Of a DNA stretch of 64,000 bases, positions 7,616 to 64,000 are shown in pieces. The notes beneath the pieces are model-generated. The model did no database searches, had not been told where the DNA came from, and worked only from the letters and a program-made list of their open reading frames with translations. Position numbers and translations under genes: made by a program. Origin of the DNA: Haloarcula salinisoli (GTDB lineage: Archaea; Halobacteriota; Halobacteria; Halobacteriales; Haloarculaceae). The stretch lies in the NCBI RefSeq assembly GCF_019599405.1, contig NZ_RKLQ01000001.1, positions 434,001 through 498,000 of the forward strand, read 5' to 3'. How positions within the stretch are numbered: position 1 is the stretch's first letter; each line of letters begins with the position of its first letter.

Positions 7616-8019
7616 CGAGACGACGAGCGAAGCGAGTCGTCTCGTATGGCGAGCGGGGAGAAACGACCCGCAAGCCGAGGGAAGCGAGTCGTCTCGCTGC
7701 TCTCCGGCTCACTTCGTTCGCCGTTCCGCTTCGAGGCGTTCCCTCCGGTCGGAACCTCGCTACTCACGGTTCGCTTCGCTCACCGTTCGTTTTCGAGACG
7801 TCTCCCGTTGGTCGACGTCTCGCTACTGCTCCGCGGCTCGCGATGCTCGCCGCGTCGCTTTCGAGATATCGACGCCGTCGATATCTCGCTACTGCTCCAC
7901 GGGTCACTTCGTTCCCCGTTCCGCTTCGAGGCGTTCCCTCCGGTCACGCCTCGCTACTCACGGTTCGCTTCGCTCACCGTTCGTTTTCGAGACGTCTCCC
8001 GTTGGTCGACGTCTCGCTA
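7616..8019. repeat. palindrome-rich spacer with about 100-bp direct repeat
   Basis: No gene is seen between the pseudokinase and dapD stops. The spacer is a chain of hairpins such as GAGACGACnnGTCGTCTC and CGAGACGTC/GACGTCTCG. A block of about 100 bp occurs twice in direct orientation (about 7722-7825 and 7918-8019); the last 71 bp of each copy (7755-7825 and 7949-8019) are identical. The second copy runs into the dapD stop codon at 8017-8019. The two genes converge here, so the hairpins may serve as a two-way transcription barrier. Confidence 0.8.
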
Positions 8020-16282: not shown

Positions 16283-16377
16283 TGTTGTACGCAGTATGCC
16301 ACGGGTCTGTGTTAAACGCCCGGGTTCCTAGCTGTCTATCTGGTCATGACTGCAACGCGTACAACAGCAGCCATGAA
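16283..16377 (-). promoter_or_regulatory. tfs promoter region
   Basis: The spacer between tfs and repeat A1 holds a TATA-like GTTAAACG (16311-16318, read on the plus strand) about 30 bp from the ATG. Nothing else is seen. Confidence 0.45.
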
Positions 16378-16679
16378 CAGCCAGAAAGCCCCGGCAGGCT
16401 CCGGTCGGGGGACTCGTTGCGCTCCTCACTCACTACGTTCGTTCCGGTGCTTACGTCGTCCGCCTTCCCGGAGCCTGCCGCCCCTTCCAGCCCCGCCCGG
16501 TCGGCCGTTCCACGGGGCGGGACTGAAAGGGGCCGAGCGCGTGGCGGCTTCGCCGCCACGTTAGACGAGGTCGGCAGAGCCGACCTCGCGCTCGACGAGC
16601 GAGACGAAGTAAGGACCGCAGCCGTAGGCGAGGACCGCAGCGAGTCGTAGCCGACGAGCGGTCGGGGGCTTTCCGGCTG
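16378..16679. repeat. structured repeat family A, copy A1
   Basis: A 302-bp non-coding element bounded by CAGCCAGAAAGCCCC (16378-16392) and GGGGCTTTCCGGCTG (16665-16679), one mismatch apart from perfect complementarity. Inside are a variable arm GGCAGGCTCCGG (16393-16404) paired with CCGGAGCCTGCC (16468-16479), and a central stem CCCCTTCCAGCCCCGCCC (16481-16498) facing GGGCGGGACTGAAAGGGG. A GTGGCGGC hairpin (about 16541-16559) lies in the last arm. Stem order outer, arm, central stem, arm gives a cloverleaf. Copies A2 and A3 share the layout. No protein is plausible here. Confidence 0.8.
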
Positions 16680-16765
16680 TCGTAGGAGTAGTCACTCGAA
16701 GCTGCTATCGGTCAGTCCCATATGTGGGACGTCGCAGTTACAGAAGTGGAGGGAGTTCAGCTGAT

Positions 16766-23284: not shown

Positions 23285-24628
23285 ATGGGACTATTCGACC
23301 GTCTGAAAGGTGACGACGCGCCGCGTGTCGCCTTCTTCGGCATCGACGGGGTGCCGTACAGCCTCATCGACGAGCATCCGGACGTGTTTCCGAACCTCAC
23401 CGAGCTCAAGGAGTCGGGCGCTGCCGGCCCCATCGACAGCATCGTGCCCCCCGAATCGAGCGCCTGCTGGCCGGCGCTGACGACCGGCGTCAACCCCGGC
23501 GAAACCGGTGTCTACGGCTTCCAGGACCGCGAGGTCGGGTCGTACGATACGTACGTCCCCATGGGTCGGGACGTCCAGGCCACCCGACTGTGGGACCGAA
23601 TCACCGACGAGGGCCGTGACGCCACCGTGCTGAACGTCCCCGTCACCTTCCCCCCACAGCGCAACGTCCAGCGGATGGTCTCGGGCTTTCTCTCGCCCGG
23701 CGTCGACAAGGCCGCCTACCCCGACGACCTGCGTGACCACCTTCAGGACACCAACTACCGCATCGACGTCAACGCGAAACTGGGCCACGACGACGACAAG
23801 ACGGAGTTCGTCGAGGACGCCCACAAGACGCTCGAACGCCGCTACGAGGCCTTCTCACACTACGTCGAGCAGGACGACTGGGACCTCTTTTTCGGCGTCT
23901 TCATGACCACCGACCGGGTCAACCACTTCCTGTTCAAGGACTACGAGCAGGACGGCGAGTACCAGGAGGAGTTCTTCGACTTCTATCGCCAGGTCGACGA
24001 GTATCTGGGCAAGCTGCGCGACCAGCTCGACGACGACGTGACGATGGTCGTCGCCTCTGACCACGGCTTCACCACCCTCGACTACGAGGTTCACTTCAAC
24101 GAGTGGCTCGCCGAGGAAGGATGGCTGGACTTTGCCGAGGACGACCACTCCGAACTCGGCGACATCAGCGAGGACACCGAGGCGTACTCGCTCATCCCGG
24201 GTCGGTTCTACATCAACCTCGAGGGCCGCGAGCCAAACGGCGGCGTCAGCGAGGACGACTACGAGGACGTCCGCGCGGACCTCAAGGAGAAACTCGAGAA
24301 CCTGGAGGGTCCCAACGGCAACAAGGTCGCCGACCGCGTCGTCACCCGCGAGGACGCCTTCCGCGGCGACCACTCCGATATCGCCCCCGACCTCGTCGTC
24401 ATCCCGAACCACGGCTTCGACCTCAAAGCCGGCTTCAAGGGCAGCGACGACGTCTTCGGCGTGGGCCCGCGCAACGGGATGCACTCGTTCGACAACGCCA
24501 CGCTGTTGGTCGACGACGCGGACGCCCGCATTAACGACGCCGACCTCTACGACATCGCGCCCACCATCCTGGACCTGATGGACCACGACTACGACCGGAC
24601 CGAGTTCGACGGTAGCAGTCTGGTATAG
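23285..24628 (+). CDS. alkaline phosphatase-superfamily phosphodiesterase
   Basis: A 447-aa type I phosphodiesterase/nucleotide pyrophosphatase-like enzyme. Metal residues are in VAFFGIDGVPYS (Asp21), the nucleophile region is SSACWPALTTGVNPGETGVYG (candidate Thr66), and the second metal set is in TTDRVNHFLF, VASDHGFTTL and the C-terminal NGMHSFDNATLL region with a His. Such haloarchaeal proteins are probably cytosolic phosphohydrolases of nucleotides or glycolipid head groups. No signal peptide. The stop TAG is part of TAGTACCTTTTT, an element shared with two other gene ends. Confidence 0.88.
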   Translation: MGLFDRLKGDDAPRVAFFGIDGVPYSLIDEHPDVFPNLTELKESGAAGPIDSIVPPESSACWPALTTGVNPGETGVYGFQDREVGSYDTYVPMGRDVQATRLWDRITDEGRDATVLNVPVTFPPQRNVQRMVSGFLSPGVDKAAYPDDLRDHLQDTNYRIDVNAKLGHDDDKTEFVEDAHKTLERRYEAFSHYVEQDDWDLFFGVFMTTDRVNHFLFKDYEQDGEYQEEFFDFYRQVDEYLGKLRDQLDDDVTMVVASDHGFTTLDYEVHFNEWLAEEGWLDFAEDDHSELGDISEDTEAYSLIPGRFYINLEGREPNGGVSEDDYEDVRADLKEKLENLEGPNGNKVADRVVTREDAFRGDHSDIAPDLVVIPNHGFDLKAGFKGSDDVFGVGPRNGMHSFDNATLLVDDADARINDADLYDIAPTILDLMDHDYDRTEFDGSSLV

Positions 24629-24880
24629 TACCTTTTTCCGCCTCGGGTTTCCTCGCGCGCTCTTAGAGCGCGCTGTGGGAACAGCGTGGCGGCTGCGCCG
24701 CCACGTCATCCGGTTGCGGGCCGCCGGCCCGCAACCCGCTCGGCGCAAAAATCTACGCTAAAAAGGCCGGAATCTCGGCCTGGGGCCTCGATTCCGGTGA
24801 AACCGCTCGCCGATGGCGAGCGGTATGCTTCGGCGGACTGCCTGCCCTTCCCCGTCGGCGCGGCACGGAGGCCGCGCCCG
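24626..24880. repeat. family D repeat, copy D1
   Basis: Starts at the phosphodiesterase stop. In order: TAGTACCTTTTTCC, hairpin GCGCGCTC/GAGCGCGC (24655-24673), hairpin GTGGCGG/CCGCCAC (24686-24704), hairpin GGTTGCGGGCC/GGCCCGCAACC (24712-24736), CAAAAATCTACGCTAAAAA, hairpin ACCGCTCGCC/GGCGAGCGGT (24802-24824), then GACTGCCTGCCC and further GC-rich pairs. Copy D2 (60283-60540, opposite strand) has the same order with different hairpin sequences. Confidence 0.75.
24629..24637 (+). terminator. T-run terminator of the phosphodiesterase gene
   Basis: TACCTTTTTCC follows the stop TAG immediately; U-rich tracts terminate archaeal transcription. The same TAGTACCTTTTT string ends the convergent cetZ gene. 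Confidence 0.5.
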
Positions 24881-24985
24881 GCCATTCGTGCGGTTATCGC
24901 AAGCATCCGCGCGAGCGTAACGAGCGCGGTTCACCGAAAGCGCGCCAGCGGGGCGCTTTCGGCATTTTTTAGCGTAGATTTTTGC
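24745..24985. repeat. 241-bp element with 20-bp perfect terminal inverted repeats
   Basis: GCAAAAATCTACGCTAAAAA at 24745-24764 and its exact reverse complement at 24966-24985 enclose GC-rich hairpins (for example CCGAAAGCGCG...CGCTTTCGG). It overlaps D1 and resembles a MITE in shape, but its left half continues as D1, so the inverted ends may simply be one more stem of the structure. No gene. Confidence 0.65.
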
Positions 24986-52390: not shown

Positions 52391-52478
52391 TGAACTGGGG
52401 TTTGCGAGGACGGTGTTTGTGCGTTTCGAAGCTAGGTATCGGCGTTTGGGTTTCTGACGGGAACGCTACCGCTCGGAA
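52391..52478 (-). promoter_or_regulatory. promoter region of the RNA methyltransferase
   Basis: The 88-bp spacer between the ATG and repeat A2 has no clear TATA box; weak candidate GGTGTTTGTG at about 52412-52421. Nothing else is seen. Confidence 0.3.
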
Positions 52479-52742
52479 CCGCCAGAAAGCCCCGACCGGT
52501 TACACTCCCACGACTCGCTTCGGTCCTCACTCACTGCGTTCGTTGCGGTCCTTGCGTCGTCGGGGTTCGTGTAACCGGTCGCCCCTTTCAGTCCCGCGCG
52601 TAGCCGGTTGGTCAACTGCATGGGTGGGACTGAAAGGGGCGGCCTGTTCGACGACGGCGGGCGACGTAAGCACCACAGCGAGTGTAACGAGCGAGGAGCG
52701 CAGCGAGGCCCCCGAGTCGAACGGGTCGGGGCTTTCTGGCGG
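52479..52742. repeat. structured repeat family A, copy A2
   Basis: A 264-bp element. Outer stem: 19 bp perfect, 52479-52497 with 52724-52742 (CCAGAAAGCCCCG core). First arm: GACCGGTTACAC (52494-52505) with GTGTAACCGGTC (52569-52580). Central stem: GCCCCTTTCAGTCCC (52581-52595) with GGGACTGAAAGGGGC (52626-52640), loop with GCCGGTTGGTCAACTGC. Last arm: CCTGTTCGAC (52643-52652) with GTCGAACGGG (52716-52725), one G-U type pair. It is the simplest copy and shows the four-stem cloverleaf plan most cleanly. It lies 85 bp from the end of tnpB. Confidence 0.85.
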
Positions 52743-52827
52743 TGAACACTCACGGTACTATCCGCAAACCCAATCACAGTCACGTCTGCTAGCAGCCATG
52801 CCTGTCAACTACCCCACCCTACTTCGC
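52743..52827. other. spacer with right end of TnpB element
   Basis: Contains TCAACTACCCCACCCT at 52805-52820, which pairs with AGGGTGGG (52852-52859) inside the tnpB end. By analogy to IS200/IS605-family right ends the element probably stops near 52806; a guide, if any, would be copied from DNA just beyond. Confidence 0.45.
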
Positions 52828-54099
52828 TCACCCTGACGGATTCGCTCGTGGAGGGTGGGACTTGTCCGTGAACTCGGACTCGAACCCGTCTGGGTGGGCG
52901 GTGAATCCGCCACTCGGCGTCACTGTTCCAGACTTCAGGGCGAGTTGACTGTCGCCCGTCCGCCGAGACGACTGTTGGCCTCGACGAACATACCGCATTC
53001 CAATGTTCTTCGCCGCATTGTAATCCGCGTTCGCTTCAGACTCGCATCTCACGCACCGGAAGTCGGTGCGAGTCGGGCGGTTCTCGCCTGCCGTGAATCC
53101 ACACTCCGCGCACCGCTTCGAGGTGTACGCCGACCCGACTTGCTTCACCGAGATTCCTTCCGCTTCGGCTTTGTACTCCACCTGCTCATACAGCGCTTGG
53201 AATGCCCATTTGTGCCCCCACGATGCACCCGTTCGATCGCGGATATGGGTCAGATCCTCGAACGCTATCACGTCGCACTCGTACCGGAGTGCTTCGTCTA
53301 CGATGGCGTTCGACGCTCGGTGGAGTACGTCACGGACGTATCGCAGCTGGCGTCCACTCGACTGTTCAAGGGTTCTGTGGGCGCTTCGAGTGTCTGTCTG
53401 TTGGAGGCCAGCGCGTACCTTCTCGAACTCTCGGAGGTCGTGGGTGAGTTCCCGCCCGCTGAAGAAGCAGGCGGTGCTGGTGACAGCGAGATTTTCGATA
53501 CCGAGGTCAACCCCGAGGACCGTTCCGTCCTCAGCGGTATCACGTTCTGTATCGGTTTTGAGTCGGCGGAAGCCGATATGCAAGAAGTAGTCGCCGCCGC
53601 GGGCGGTAAGCGTGCTTTCTGTGACGCTCCACTTTTTAGAATCGAGGTACTGCTGTTGGTAGCCATCATCGGCGTCGGGCAGAGCAAGTTCACACCGGAC
53701 GCGACTCTCCGTCGTAGAGAGCGACACCGTATCGTCATCAAACAGTGTCATGGTCCGGGTGTCGTATTTCACTGTGGGCGTGGTGAAGGTTGGCTTGCTG
53801 ACCTTCTTGCCGTTGGCTCGGCGTTCGATACAGCCGGTAATGGCTTGTGCGGCTTGGTGAGTGGCGAGAATCGCGTGCTGACTCCCGAGGTCGGTTTCGT
53901 CGCGCACTGTGTCGTAGGCGAGGGGCTGTACGTCGCTCTTTGCGTTGCACTTGCCCCACGCCATATCGGTGGCGATTTGGCAACCACGCTTCCACTCGGT
54001 GATAGTCTGTTCGAGCAGGTCGCGCTGCTCGTCAGTTACCGAGAGGCGTGTGATTGCCGTCCGACGCACATAGTCGTCTGCCACAGCTTCAATGTGCAT
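52828..54099 (-). CDS. tnpB: RNA-guided nuclease TnpB (IS1341 family)
   Basis: A 423-aa TnpB, ancestor-type of Cas12 nucleases. The RuvC triad is complete: Asp198 (GVDLGIENLAV), Glu281 (IAFEDLTHIRDR) and Asp359 (ADYNAAKNIG). The zinc finger is Cys330/333 and Cys349/352 (CAECGF, CVRCES). The helical DNA-recognition lobe occupies 20-180. A TATA box at about 54108-54117 is better placed for a GTG start at 54084 (VADDYVRRTAITR) than for ATG 54099. Frame is uninterrupted, so the protein may be active. Confidence 0.92.
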   Translation of the reverse strand: MHIEAVADDYVRRTAITRLSVTDEQRDLLEQTITEWKRGCQIATDMAWGKCNAKSDVQPLAYDTVRDETDLGSQHAILATHQAAQAITGCIERRANGKKVSKPTFTTPTVKYDTRTMTLFDDDTVSLSTTESRVRCELALPDADDGYQQQYLDSKKWSVTESTLTARGGDYFLHIGFRRLKTDTERDTAEDGTVLGVDLGIENLAVTSTACFFSGRELTHDLREFEKVRAGLQQTDTRSAHRTLEQSSGRQLRYVRDVLHRASNAIVDEALRYECDVIAFEDLTHIRDRTGASWGHKWAFQALYEQVEYKAEAEGISVKQVGSAYTSKRCAECGFTAGENRPTRTDFRCVRCESEANADYNAAKNIGMRYVRRGQQSSRRTGDSQLALKSGTVTPSGGFTAHPDGFESEFTDKSHPPRANPSG

Positions 54100-60282: not shown

Positions 60283-60540
60283 ATCGGCCGAGCGCGGCCT
60301 CCGGGCCGCGCTGACGGGGACGGGCAGGCAGTCCTGTCGAGCATACCGCTCGCCGCTGGCGAGCGGTTTCACCGGAATCGAACGCAGTGAGATTCCGGCC
60401 TTTTTAGCGTAGATTTTTGCCGGGAGTGGGTTGCGGGCCAACGGCCCGCAACCGAACAACGTGGCGGCTTCGCCGCCACGCAGTTCCCGCAGGCCGACGA
60501 AGTCGGCCTAGGAAACCCGACCGGGAAAAAGGTACTACTT
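60283..60540. repeat. family D repeat, copy D2 (reverse orientation)
   Basis: Read on the minus strand from 60540: GTAGTACCTTTTT just after the nucleotidyltransferase stop, hairpin AGGCCGAC/GTCGGCCT (60491-60509), GTGGCGG/CCGCCAC hairpin (about 60461-60479), GGTTGCGGGCC/GGCCCGCAACC (60429-60453), CAAAAATCTACGCTAAAAA (60402-60420), hairpin ACCGCTCGCC/GGCGAGCGGT (60345-60367), CTGCCTGCCC and GCGCGGCC pairs (to about 60290). Same order as D1; the first hairpin is a different sequence that still pairs. Confidence 0.75.
60526..60537 (-). terminator. T-run terminator of the nucleotidyltransferase gene
   Basis: On the minus strand TAGTACCTTTTT begins 3 nt after the TGA stop, the same string as at the ends of the phosphodiesterase and cetZ genes. 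Confidence 0.45.
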
Positions 60541-62080: not shown

Positions 62081-62160
62081 GGGCGTGCTTCTCGCGGACG
62101 GGTAATAGTTCGTGGCCCGGGCTCTGGGACGGTCTTTGGTTCGAGCAATGGGAGTTCGAA
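62081..62160 (-). promoter_or_regulatory. mce promoter region
   Basis: GGGTAATAGTTC (62100-62111) lies about 20-31 bp ahead of ATG 62080 and is the probable TATA box. Confidence 0.45.
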
Positions 62161-62530
62161 CTGCCAGAAAGCCCCGGCACGCTAACCTCGGGGGTGGTTC
62201 GAGAGAGCTTCGCTCTCTCGTCATCCCGAAAATCAGAGATTTTCGGAGAACTCGCTGTGCTCCTCACTACGTTGTCGTTCGAGAGAGCTTCGCTCTCTCG
62301 TGATCACGGAAGGCCTCTGGTCTTCCGAACGACGGTGCTTGCGTCGTCCGCCGTCGGTTAGCGTGCCGCCCGTTTCAGTCCCGCTCATAGCCGGTTGACC
62401 GGTCAGCATGGGTGGGACTGAAAGGGGCCGCGCTCTGGACGAACCCCGACGATGCAAGGACCACAATGAACGCAGTGAATGAGGACCGCAGCGAGGCGCG
62501 GGAGTTCAGAGCGCGGGGGCTTTCTGGTCG
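62161..62530. repeat. structured repeat family A, copy A3 with nested palindromes
   Basis: A 370-bp element. Outer stem CCAGAAAGCCCC (62164-62175) / GGGGCTTTCTGG (62516-62527). First arm GGCACGCTAAC (62176-62186) / GTTAGCGTGCC (62357-62367); central stem TTTCAGTCCC / GGGACTGAAAGGGG; last arm CCGCGCTCTGGAC (62428-62440) / GTTCAGAGCGCGG (62504-62516) with one wobble. The first arm's loop is enlarged by two copies of CGAGAGAGCTTCGCTCTCTC, CCGAAAATC...GATTTTCGG (62226-62246) and GGAAGGCC...GGTCTTCC. No gene. Confidence 0.85.
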
Positions 62531-62583
62531 TTAGAATTCCGATTAGCTCAAGTAAACACGATCCTCCGCTCCGGGACTCCCAC

Positions 62584-64000
62584 CTACATCGACGAGCCGG
62601 GTTGGTACTCCCCGAAGACGTCCCGGAGCACGTCACACACCTCGCCGGTCGTCGCGTAGACCTTCACCGCGTCGACGATGTAGGGCATGAGATTCTCGTC
62701 GCCGCGAGCCGCTTCTCGGAGCTCCTCCAGTGCAGCCGCGACGGCGTCGTCGTCACGCTCTTCGCGGACCTCGGCGACGCTCTCCTGCTGGGCCGCTTCG
62801 ACGGCCTCGTCGACCTCCTCGATATCCTGTTCGCCTTTCTCCTCGACCTCGAATTCGTTGACACCGACGATGATGCGCTCGCCGGCCTCCTGTTCGCGCT
62901 GGCGCTCGAAGGCAACGTCCTGAATCTGGCGCTGGACCCACTGGTTCTCGATGGCCCGGCGCATCCCACCACGCTCGTCTACGTCCTCGATTATCTCGCG
63001 GGCCTCCTGTTCCAGTTCGTCGGTCAGGGACTCGACGTAGTAGCTGCCCGCGAGCGGGTCGATGGTGTCGGCCGCGCCCGACTCGTGGGCCAGAATCTGC
63101 TGGGTCCGCAGAGCCGTCCGGACGGACTCCTCCGTCGGCAGGCCGATGGCCTCGTCCTTGCCGTTGGTGTGGAGGCTCTGGGTCCCACCCAGGACCGCCG
63201 CCAACGCCTGGTAGGCCACCCGGACGACGTTGTTCTCTATCTGCTGGGCGGTCAGCGTCGAGCCGGCGGTCTGGGTGTGGAACTTGAGTTGCTTGGACTT
63301 GGGATTCTCGGCGTCGAAGCGCTCGTCCATGAGTTTCGCCCAGAGCCGCCGCGCCGCACGGAACTTCGCGACCTCTTCGAGAATGTTGTTGTACGACGCG
63401 AAGAAAAAGGAAAGCTGTGGGGCAAAGTCGTCGACCTCCAGCCCGGCCTCGATGGCGGCCTCGACGTACTCGATACCGTTCCCGAGCGTGAACGCGATCT
63501 CCTGGGCGGCGGTCGAGCCGGCCTCGCGGATGTGATAGCCCGAGATGGAGATGGTGTTGAAGTTCGGCGTCTCCGCGGCGCAGAACTCGAAGATGTCGGT
63601 GATGAGACGCATCGACGGTTCCGGCGGGTAGATGAAGGTGTTGCGCGCGATGTACTCTTTGAGCACGTCGTTCTGGATGGTGCCCCGCAGTTCCTCGCGG
63701 TCGACGCCCTGAACGTCGCCGACGGCGATGTACATCGCCAGCAGGACGGCCGCGGGCGCGTTGATGGTCATCGACGTCGAGACCTCGGAAAGTGGGATGC
63801 CCTCGAAGACGGTCTCCATGTCGGCCAGCGAGTCGATAGCCACGCCCGTCTTGCCTACCTCGCCCGCGGCCATCGCGTCGTCGGAGTCGTAGCCCATCTG
63901 GGTCGGCAGGTCAAAGGCCATCGAGAGGCCGGTCTGGCCCTCGTCGAGGAGATAGTTGAACCGCTCGTTGGTCTCGGCTGCGGTCCCCATTCCGGCGTAC
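62584..64000 (-). CDS. methylmalonyl-CoA mutase large subunit, 5' end outside window
   Basis: 472 residues of the B12-dependent mutase barrel domain; the frame continues through the right edge (Tyr-Ala-Gly before [18 protein letters not shown]). Seen are [21 protein letters not shown]-type motif [58 protein letters not shown] and [20 protein letters not shown] of the CoA-binding barrel. The cobalamin-binding domain is not fused at the C terminus, so it must be a separate gene, as in other archaea. Next downstream is mce. Together they work in propionyl-CoA/methylmalonyl-CoA metabolism. Confidence 0.95.

What the first reader, a model, noticed from the sequence alone, without database searches (positions are those of the whole stretch)
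52479..52742. Family A: three cloverleaf-shaped repeats with compensating arms (A1 16378-16679, A2 52479-52742, A3 62161-62530)
All three share a fixed frame: outer stem CCAGAAAGCCCC/GGGGCTTTCTGG, first arm, central stem with TTTCAGTCCC/GGGACTGAAAGGGG, last arm. The first arms are unrelated in sequence (GGCAGGCTCCGG; GACCGGTTACAC; GGCACGCTAAC), yet each has an exact partner at the matching place; last arms of A2 and A3 also differ but pair. Such covariation means the fold is selected or copied as a structure. I know no named element of this shape; it could be a large ncRNA, a DNA cruciform element or a passive structured mobile element.
Basis: seen in the sequence. Interest (0 to 1): 0.8.

Follow-up and report, generated by a model that had tools for sequence, protein, structure and literature searches.

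The report
Jumping DNA cloverleaf of salt-loving archaea
The three repeats are old copies of a small non-coding jumping element (a MITE of the IS6/ISH14 transposon type) that has spread through Haloarcula-type archaea; its hairpin arms change sequence almost completely between copies and species while staying exactly self-complementary, which suggests that the DNA shape rather than the sequence is what is kept.

Summary
The window genome (a Haloarcula-type haloarchaeon) holds about 75-85 copies of the cloverleaf (174 ends), and the family recurs, in lineage-specific bursts, across haloarchaea. It is absent from the phage and viral collections searched. Young copies in a relative show what it is: a MITE of roughly 180-370 bp ending in GGYNGTGTTTAGTT. 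It has exact 8-bp target duplications in 14 of 26 copies, with 5 more one mismatch off. An intact 696-bp ISH14-like IS6-family insertion sequence has the same ends and an 8-bp duplication. In the window genome 17 of 127 copy ends still show this terminus, all at exactly the expected offset; A3 is one of them. The arm covariation is overwhelming: 138 arms, 110 distinct 13-bp stems, 96.9% Watson-Crick, very little G-U. This points to a DNA structure rather than an RNA. Copies at the same insertion site in sister species, with flanks about 95% identical, have unrelated or inverted interiors, no more alike than random copies. So the fold outlives both the sequence and the transposon ends. That it is a MITE is well supported. 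Why and how the fold is maintained is unsolved, and is the interesting part.

The parts
16377..16680 (.). Copy A1 between and including the 16-bp subterminal inverted repeats; arms 16392-16480 and 16533-16665; core stem 16481-16494/16519-16532
52478..52743 (.). Copy A2 between and including the 16-bp subterminal inverted repeats
52478..52493 (+). A2 left 16-bp inverted repeat (ACCGCCAGAAAGCCCC; family consensus ACAGCCAGAAAGCCCC)
52493..52581 (+). A2 arm 1: 13-bp basal stem 52493-52505/52569-52581 around a conserved inner hairpin with two conserved mismatches
52582..52639 (.). A2 central hairpin: CCCCTTTCAGTCCC 52582-52595, loop, GGGACTGAAAGGGG 52626-52639
52640..52728 (-). A2 arm 2, same arm family in opposite orientation (11/13 paired)
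52728..52743 (-). A2 right 16-bp inverted repeat
62160..62531 (.). Copy A3; arm 1 (62175-62368) carries nested extra hairpin modules; core stem 62369-62382/62414-62427; arm 2 62428-62516
62546..62563 (+). Eroded but recognisable IS6-type terminus of A3 (GCTCAAGTAAACACGATC, score 14.2, at exactly the expected offset)
62112..62585 (.). Approximate extent of the A3 insertion, from relatives with an empty site

Best explanation
The repeats are copies of a non-autonomous transposable element (MITE) mobilised in trans by an ISH14-type IS6-family transposase. Shown here: its ends (GGYNGTGTTTAGTTNRG) match those of an intact IS6 insertion sequence, and young copies carry 8-bp target duplications. Inside the two 48-bp ends are stacked hairpin modules that meet at GCCCC/GGGGC: a 16-bp outer stem, a first arm, a central hairpin and a second arm, i.e. 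a four-way junction once one strand folds or a cruciform extrudes. Also shown: after insertion the transposon ends decay, but the outer stem and arm pairing persist; arm sequences diversify strongly while staying Watson-Crick exact; and at shared insertion sites the interior is replaced or inverted between species. Inferred: the fold acts at the DNA level, and is maintained by hairpin-templated correction and/or recombination between copies, or by selection for a folded-DNA function that is not yet known. The window copies are probably immobile now, because this genome has only two degraded IS6 transposase matches.
For: Covariation: 138 arms, 96.9% WC, mutual information up to 1.83 bits; of 174 arm pairs differing at one stem position 142 are compensated. 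In a 26-arm alignment 97.0% of cells pair (shuffled 68.7%, slid 33-46%) and 151 cells are changed on both sides (shuffled 45.5, slid 15-24). Copies: about 174 ends in the window genome. Uneven copy number among relatives: 153 ends in G024, 142 in G002, 105 in G114, few or none in most. Transposition: shared GGYNGTGTTTAGTT ends; 14 of 26 young copies with exact 8-bp duplications and 5 with one mismatch; the 696-bp IS with duplication GTTTAAAC encodes an IS6 transposase (NF033587, E 1.5e-54). Window genome: 17 of 127 ends match the IS6 terminus at offset 30, background 0. Empty sites for A3 in five relatives. Interior turnover: L063/L101 junctions nearly identical on both sides but interiors 130 vs 426 bp at 23% identity; full-length orthologous copies mostly 55-62% identical against a 60% median for non-orthologous pairs.
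Against: Only a minority of window-genome copies keep recognisable IS6 ends, so their transposase is inferred from relatives; A1 and A2 show no clear terminus. G002, rich in copies, has no IS6 transposase match and G000 only two sub-threshold ones. No arm in the own-genome sample of 57 has a donor at 95% identity or more within that genome, so block exchange is not demonstrated. The lowest-energy fold often joins the two arms instead. The three-base periodicity and phased CTAG outside the ends are unexplained.
Confidence: 0.85

Rival explanations
1. A structured non-coding RNA gene family (or 3'-end RNA structure) whose fold is selected after transcription, spread as a repeat.
For: Very strong covariation; intergenic location; about half of the flanks are gene 3' ends.
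Against: G-U pairs are about 0.7% on the arm strand and A-C (G-U of the other strand) about 1.4%, low for a covarying RNA. No Rfam family. The element is an imperfect palindrome, present or absent between close relatives.
Confidence: 0.05
2. The element is the MITE described, but its fold is maintained only by mutation: replication slippage and template switching in hairpins (quasi-palindrome correction) keep the arms perfect without any function.
For: Watson-Crick exactness with almost no wobble, strong stem divergence, own-arm pairing only.
Against: Pairing stops at a fixed 13 bp. Two mismatch positions inside the arm stay mismatched while their neighbours covary: G-G at alignment columns 18/76, and T-T or G-T at 32/62. 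Blind correction should remove them.
Confidence: 0.3
3. The element is the MITE described, but the cloverleaf is now a domesticated DNA-structure site (for example for a Holliday-junction-binding protein, chromosome organisation or transcription termination), kept by selection after transposition ceased.
For: Outer stem and arms intact in copies whose IS6 ends have eroded; same sites occupied in sister species at about 92-96% flank identity; conserved mismatches in the arms.
Against: Copy number ranges from 0 to about 150 ends among close relatives, so the sites are dispensable. No protein or phenotype is tied to them.
Confidence: 0.25
4. A palindrome-associated (PATE) element of the IS605 type, given the TnpB gene next to A2.
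For: TnpB (NF040570) lies at 52828-54099 beside A2; PATEs are palindromic repeats of haloarchaea (PMC3119063).
Against: PATEs lack terminal inverted repeats and target duplications (PMC3119063); this element has both.
Confidence: 0.02

Closest known systems
IS6-family MITEs, e.g. MITEHarch3 (ISfinder; cited in PMC6807381)
   Same: No transposase gene; IS6-type terminal inverted repeats; by its name probably from a haloarchaeon; the two IS6 MITEs mentioned in PMC7986276 are 227 and 336 bp, within the length range here.
   Different: Its sequence could not be obtained, so identity with this family is untested. A modular, hypervariable cloverleaf with interior turnover was not found described.
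ISH14 and related archaeal IS6 insertion sequences
   Same: L334 is 696 bp with an 8-bp duplication, as listed for ISH14 (696 bp, 211 aa, 8-bp TSD in PMC6807381); its ends match the MITE ends.
   Different: Autonomous and protein-coding; shares only the terminal bases with the MITE. That L334 is ISH14 itself was not tested.
PATE, SMR and MITE elements of Haloquadratum (PMC3119063)
   Same: Short non-coding mobile repeats of haloarchaea, some palindromic.
   Different: PATEs have no terminal inverted repeats or target duplications; no covarying arms are described in the passages read.
REP/REPIN elements and integron attC sites of bacteria (from general knowledge)
   Same: Mobile or recombining DNA whose folded single strand matters; attC sites also conserve structure over sequence with fixed unpaired bases.
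   Different: Different ends and enzymes; no integrase or RAYT partner was found or sought here.

Membership tests
IS6-family MITE | Terminal inverted repeats related to an IS6-family insertion sequence | tested here: met
   GGYNGTGTTTAGTT ends shared with the IS of L334 (IS6 transposase NF033587, E 1.5e-54). In the window genome 17 of 127 ends are still recognisable, A3 included.
IS6-family MITE | 8-bp target-site duplication | tested here: met
   14 of 26 young copies exact, 5 with one mismatch. Not demonstrable for A1 and A2.
IS6-family MITE | No transposase; too short to code for one | tested here: met
   Young copies of about 180-370 bp; the outward frame is not consistently open through the element.
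IS6-family MITE | Mobilised in trans by an IS6 transposase | not testable with these tools
   Needs a transposition assay. Most genomes of the genus have IS6 matches, G002 none, G000 only degraded ones.
PATE (IS605-derived) | No terminal inverted repeats and no target duplication | tested here: not met
   Both are present; definition from PMC3119063.
Structured non-coding RNA family | Match to a known RNA family, or RNA-like wobble pairs in a covarying fold | tested here: not met
   No Rfam match at gathering score; G-U about 0.7% of stem pairs.
Structured non-coding RNA family | Transcription | not testable with these tools
   No RNA-seq available.

The most novel reading that the evidence does not exclude
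The cloverleaf interior is a DNA-structure-based cassette. A four-way DNA junction with fixed GCCCC boxes is recognised as shape, and its arms are exchanged, inverted and rewritten at fixed genomic sites while exact complementarity and specific mismatches are preserved, independently of the transposase that spread the element.
Probability: 0.25. Interest if true: 0.85.

Novelty: new variant of a known kind. Interest (0 to 1): 0.6.

Why it matters
It is a natural experiment in which dozens of copies keep one DNA fold while their stem sequences diverge strongly and the neighbouring genes stay about 92-96% identical. That makes a hard question testable: can DNA secondary structure itself be conserved in a chromosome, and is it kept by mutation bias, by recombination between copies, or by function? 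It also shows that RNA-style covariation can arise from a mobile DNA element, a caution for searches for new non-coding RNAs.

Tried and rejected
Structured RNA: rejected as the main reading, because of almost no wobble pairs and no Rfam family. IS605/PATE origin because of the adjacent TnpB: rejected, since the element has terminal inverted repeats and 8-bp duplications. An outward-reading peptide (GFLAVRS...) suggested by the three-base periodicity in the flanks: rejected, since the frame is not consistently open inside the element and holds stops. CTAG as an insertion target or the true terminus: considered; its enrichment may partly reflect avoidance of CTAG in genes, but its phase remains unexplained. 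One long hairpin as the conserved fold: rejected, since cross-arm pairing is 6/13 against 12.7/13 within arms. Block copying of arms between present-day copies: not demonstrated, since no own-genome donor reaches 95% identity. Literature searches by motif and topic found no description of this repeat.

Full report
WHAT WAS CHECKED. The three repeats are present as described, with slightly longer outer stems: A1 16377-16680, A2 52478-52743, A3 62160-62531. The chance expectation for the six core motifs in the window is 0.34, and A2 folds 13.8 standard deviations better than shuffles.

COPY NUMBER AND ANATOMY. That genome holds 52+48 matches to the core half-site at up to one mismatch and 174 matches to the outer 16-mer at up to two, i.e. 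roughly 75-85 elements. A full copy reads ACAGCCAGAAAGCCCC, arm 1, GCCCCTTTCAGTCCC, loop, GGGACTGAAAGGGGC, arm 2, GGGGCTTTCTGGCTGT. Arms 1 and 2 are one family in opposite orientations. Copies with one arm, with no arm, or with nested double hairpins occur. Two minimal copies consist of the two ends joined, about 90 bp (L336, L337). So the element is modular.

COVARIATION. In 138 arms (selected for at least 10 of 13 pairs) the 13-bp basal stem shows 110 different sequences and 96.9% Watson-Crick pairs. At the variable positions the expectation after shuffling is 28-61%, and mutual information reaches 1.83 bits. Of 174 arm pairs differing at one stem position, 142 are compensated. On an alignment of 26 equal-length arms chosen without a pairing filter, 97.0% of cells pair against 68.7% in shuffles and 33-46% when the partner is slid, and 151 cells change on both sides against 45.5 and 15-24. 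Two inner helices covary too, around two positions that stay mismatched: G-G at columns 18/76, and T-T or G-T at 32/62 (read). G-T pairs on the arm strand are 13 of 1794 and A-C 25. RNA folds normally tolerate more wobble, so this points to DNA. The two arms pair with themselves (12.70/13), not with each other (6.02/13), although the lowest-energy fold is on average 6 kcal/mol better than the cloverleaf. The cloverleaf is therefore the conserved architecture, not always the most stable one.

WHAT IT IS. Copy number is lineage-specific: 153 outer ends in G024, 142 in G002, 105 in G114, few or none in most of 195 relatives. A search for GTGTTTAGTTNRG found about 100 ends in G024, many of them paired, and also true insertion sequences. 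One of these, G001:C5, is 696 bp, is flanked by GTTTAAAC on both sides, and encodes an IS6-family transposase (NF033587, E 1.5e-54; DDE_Tnp_IS240 in Pfam). The listed ISH14 is 696 bp and 211 aa with an 8-bp duplication (PMC6807381). Of 26 young MITE copies, 14 have exact 8-bp duplications, 5 have one mismatch, and 1 is exact with a 1-nt offset. A score matrix from those ends finds 17 of 127 window-genome ends at exactly offset 30, with a background of zero; A3 right is among them at 14.2 bits. A3 is missing in five relatives whose flanks align across the gap, the insertion including about 48 and 54 nt outside the outer stems. The family is therefore an IS6/ISH14-type MITE.

WHAT HAPPENS AFTER INSERTION. 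Most window-genome copies have lost recognisable IS6 ends, yet the 16-bp outer stem and the arm pairing are nearly intact. Fixed sites shared with sister species are revealing. In L063 (this genome) and L101 (H. rara) the flanking sequence is almost identical up to the outer stem on both sides, but the interiors are 130 and 426 bp and 23% identical. In L027/L041 one arm sequence reappears on the opposite side, as after an inversion (right flank homologous). At L001 the same site is occupied in five genomes with different arms, loops and numbers of 45-bp end units. Full-length orthologous copies are mostly 55-62% identical, no more than non-orthologous ones (median 60%). Not every pair is proven to be one insertion: L016/L305 is probably a separate, younger insertion. 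Basal stems have 56% mean pairwise identity while the inner arm keeps 78-81%. Something therefore renews the stems while preserving pairing. Candidates are hairpin-templated correction, exchange between copies through the shared boxes, or selection on a folded DNA. The data do not decide. The conserved mismatches argue against blind correction, the lack of close donors argues against recent block exchange, and the dispensability of sites argues against a vital function.

DISTRIBUTION. An exact core pattern was found only in haloarchaeal records among the 80 loci returned from the genome collection (a capped scan), not in IMG/VR viral contigs or phage records, and weakly in 19 plasmid records; all ten organism names listed in that output are haloarchaeal.

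NOVELTY. IS6 MITEs are known, MITEHarch3 among them (PMC6807381); PMC7986276 mentions two, of 227 and 336 bp. Whether MITEHarch3 belongs here could not be tested. The searches made here found no description of this repeat or of interior turnover with preserved pairing, but the library lacks most subscription papers. I therefore call it a new variant of a known kind.

LIMITS. Genomes are draft or metagenome-assembled in part. The trans-acting role of the IS6 enzyme is inferred from shared ends and duplications. The covariation controls used shuffles and slid partners, not a phylogenetic simulation. No expression or biochemical data were available.

Noticed in passing
Flanks 0-110 nt outside the 16-bp outer repeats of most copies (e.g. 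window 52744-52800, L001, L065): Pyrimidine at every third base (72% against about 40%) for about 60 nt, and CTAG almost always in one phase (78 of 90 in this genome, 48 of 58 in others). No open reading frame explains it.
   Followed up: partly
L065 (G000:C2:324200-324750), L309, L310: Tandem 45-bp copies of the element's own end (GGGGCTTTCTGGCTGTTCGCAGTG...GCTAGC) outside some copies, up to five units; the number differs between species at the same site.
   Followed up: partly
window 52828-54099 (-): TnpB (IS605 OrfB-type RNA-guided nuclease family) gene next to A2.
   Followed up: partly
window 24626-24883 and 60286-60537: A second inverted repeat pair, 87-89% alike, with its own chain of hairpins (GTGGCGGC/GCCGCCAC, GGTTGCGGGCC/GGCCCGCAACC), apparently another repeat family.
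   Followed up: no
window 7755-7825 and 7949-8019: A 71-bp direct repeat, 100% identical, starts 194 bp apart, with hairpin-like sequence.
   Followed up: no
G000 contigs C1 and C2: Copies are dense on C1 0-0.8 Mb and all of C2 (about one per 30 kb) but nearly absent from C1 0.8-1.73 Mb.
   Followed up: no
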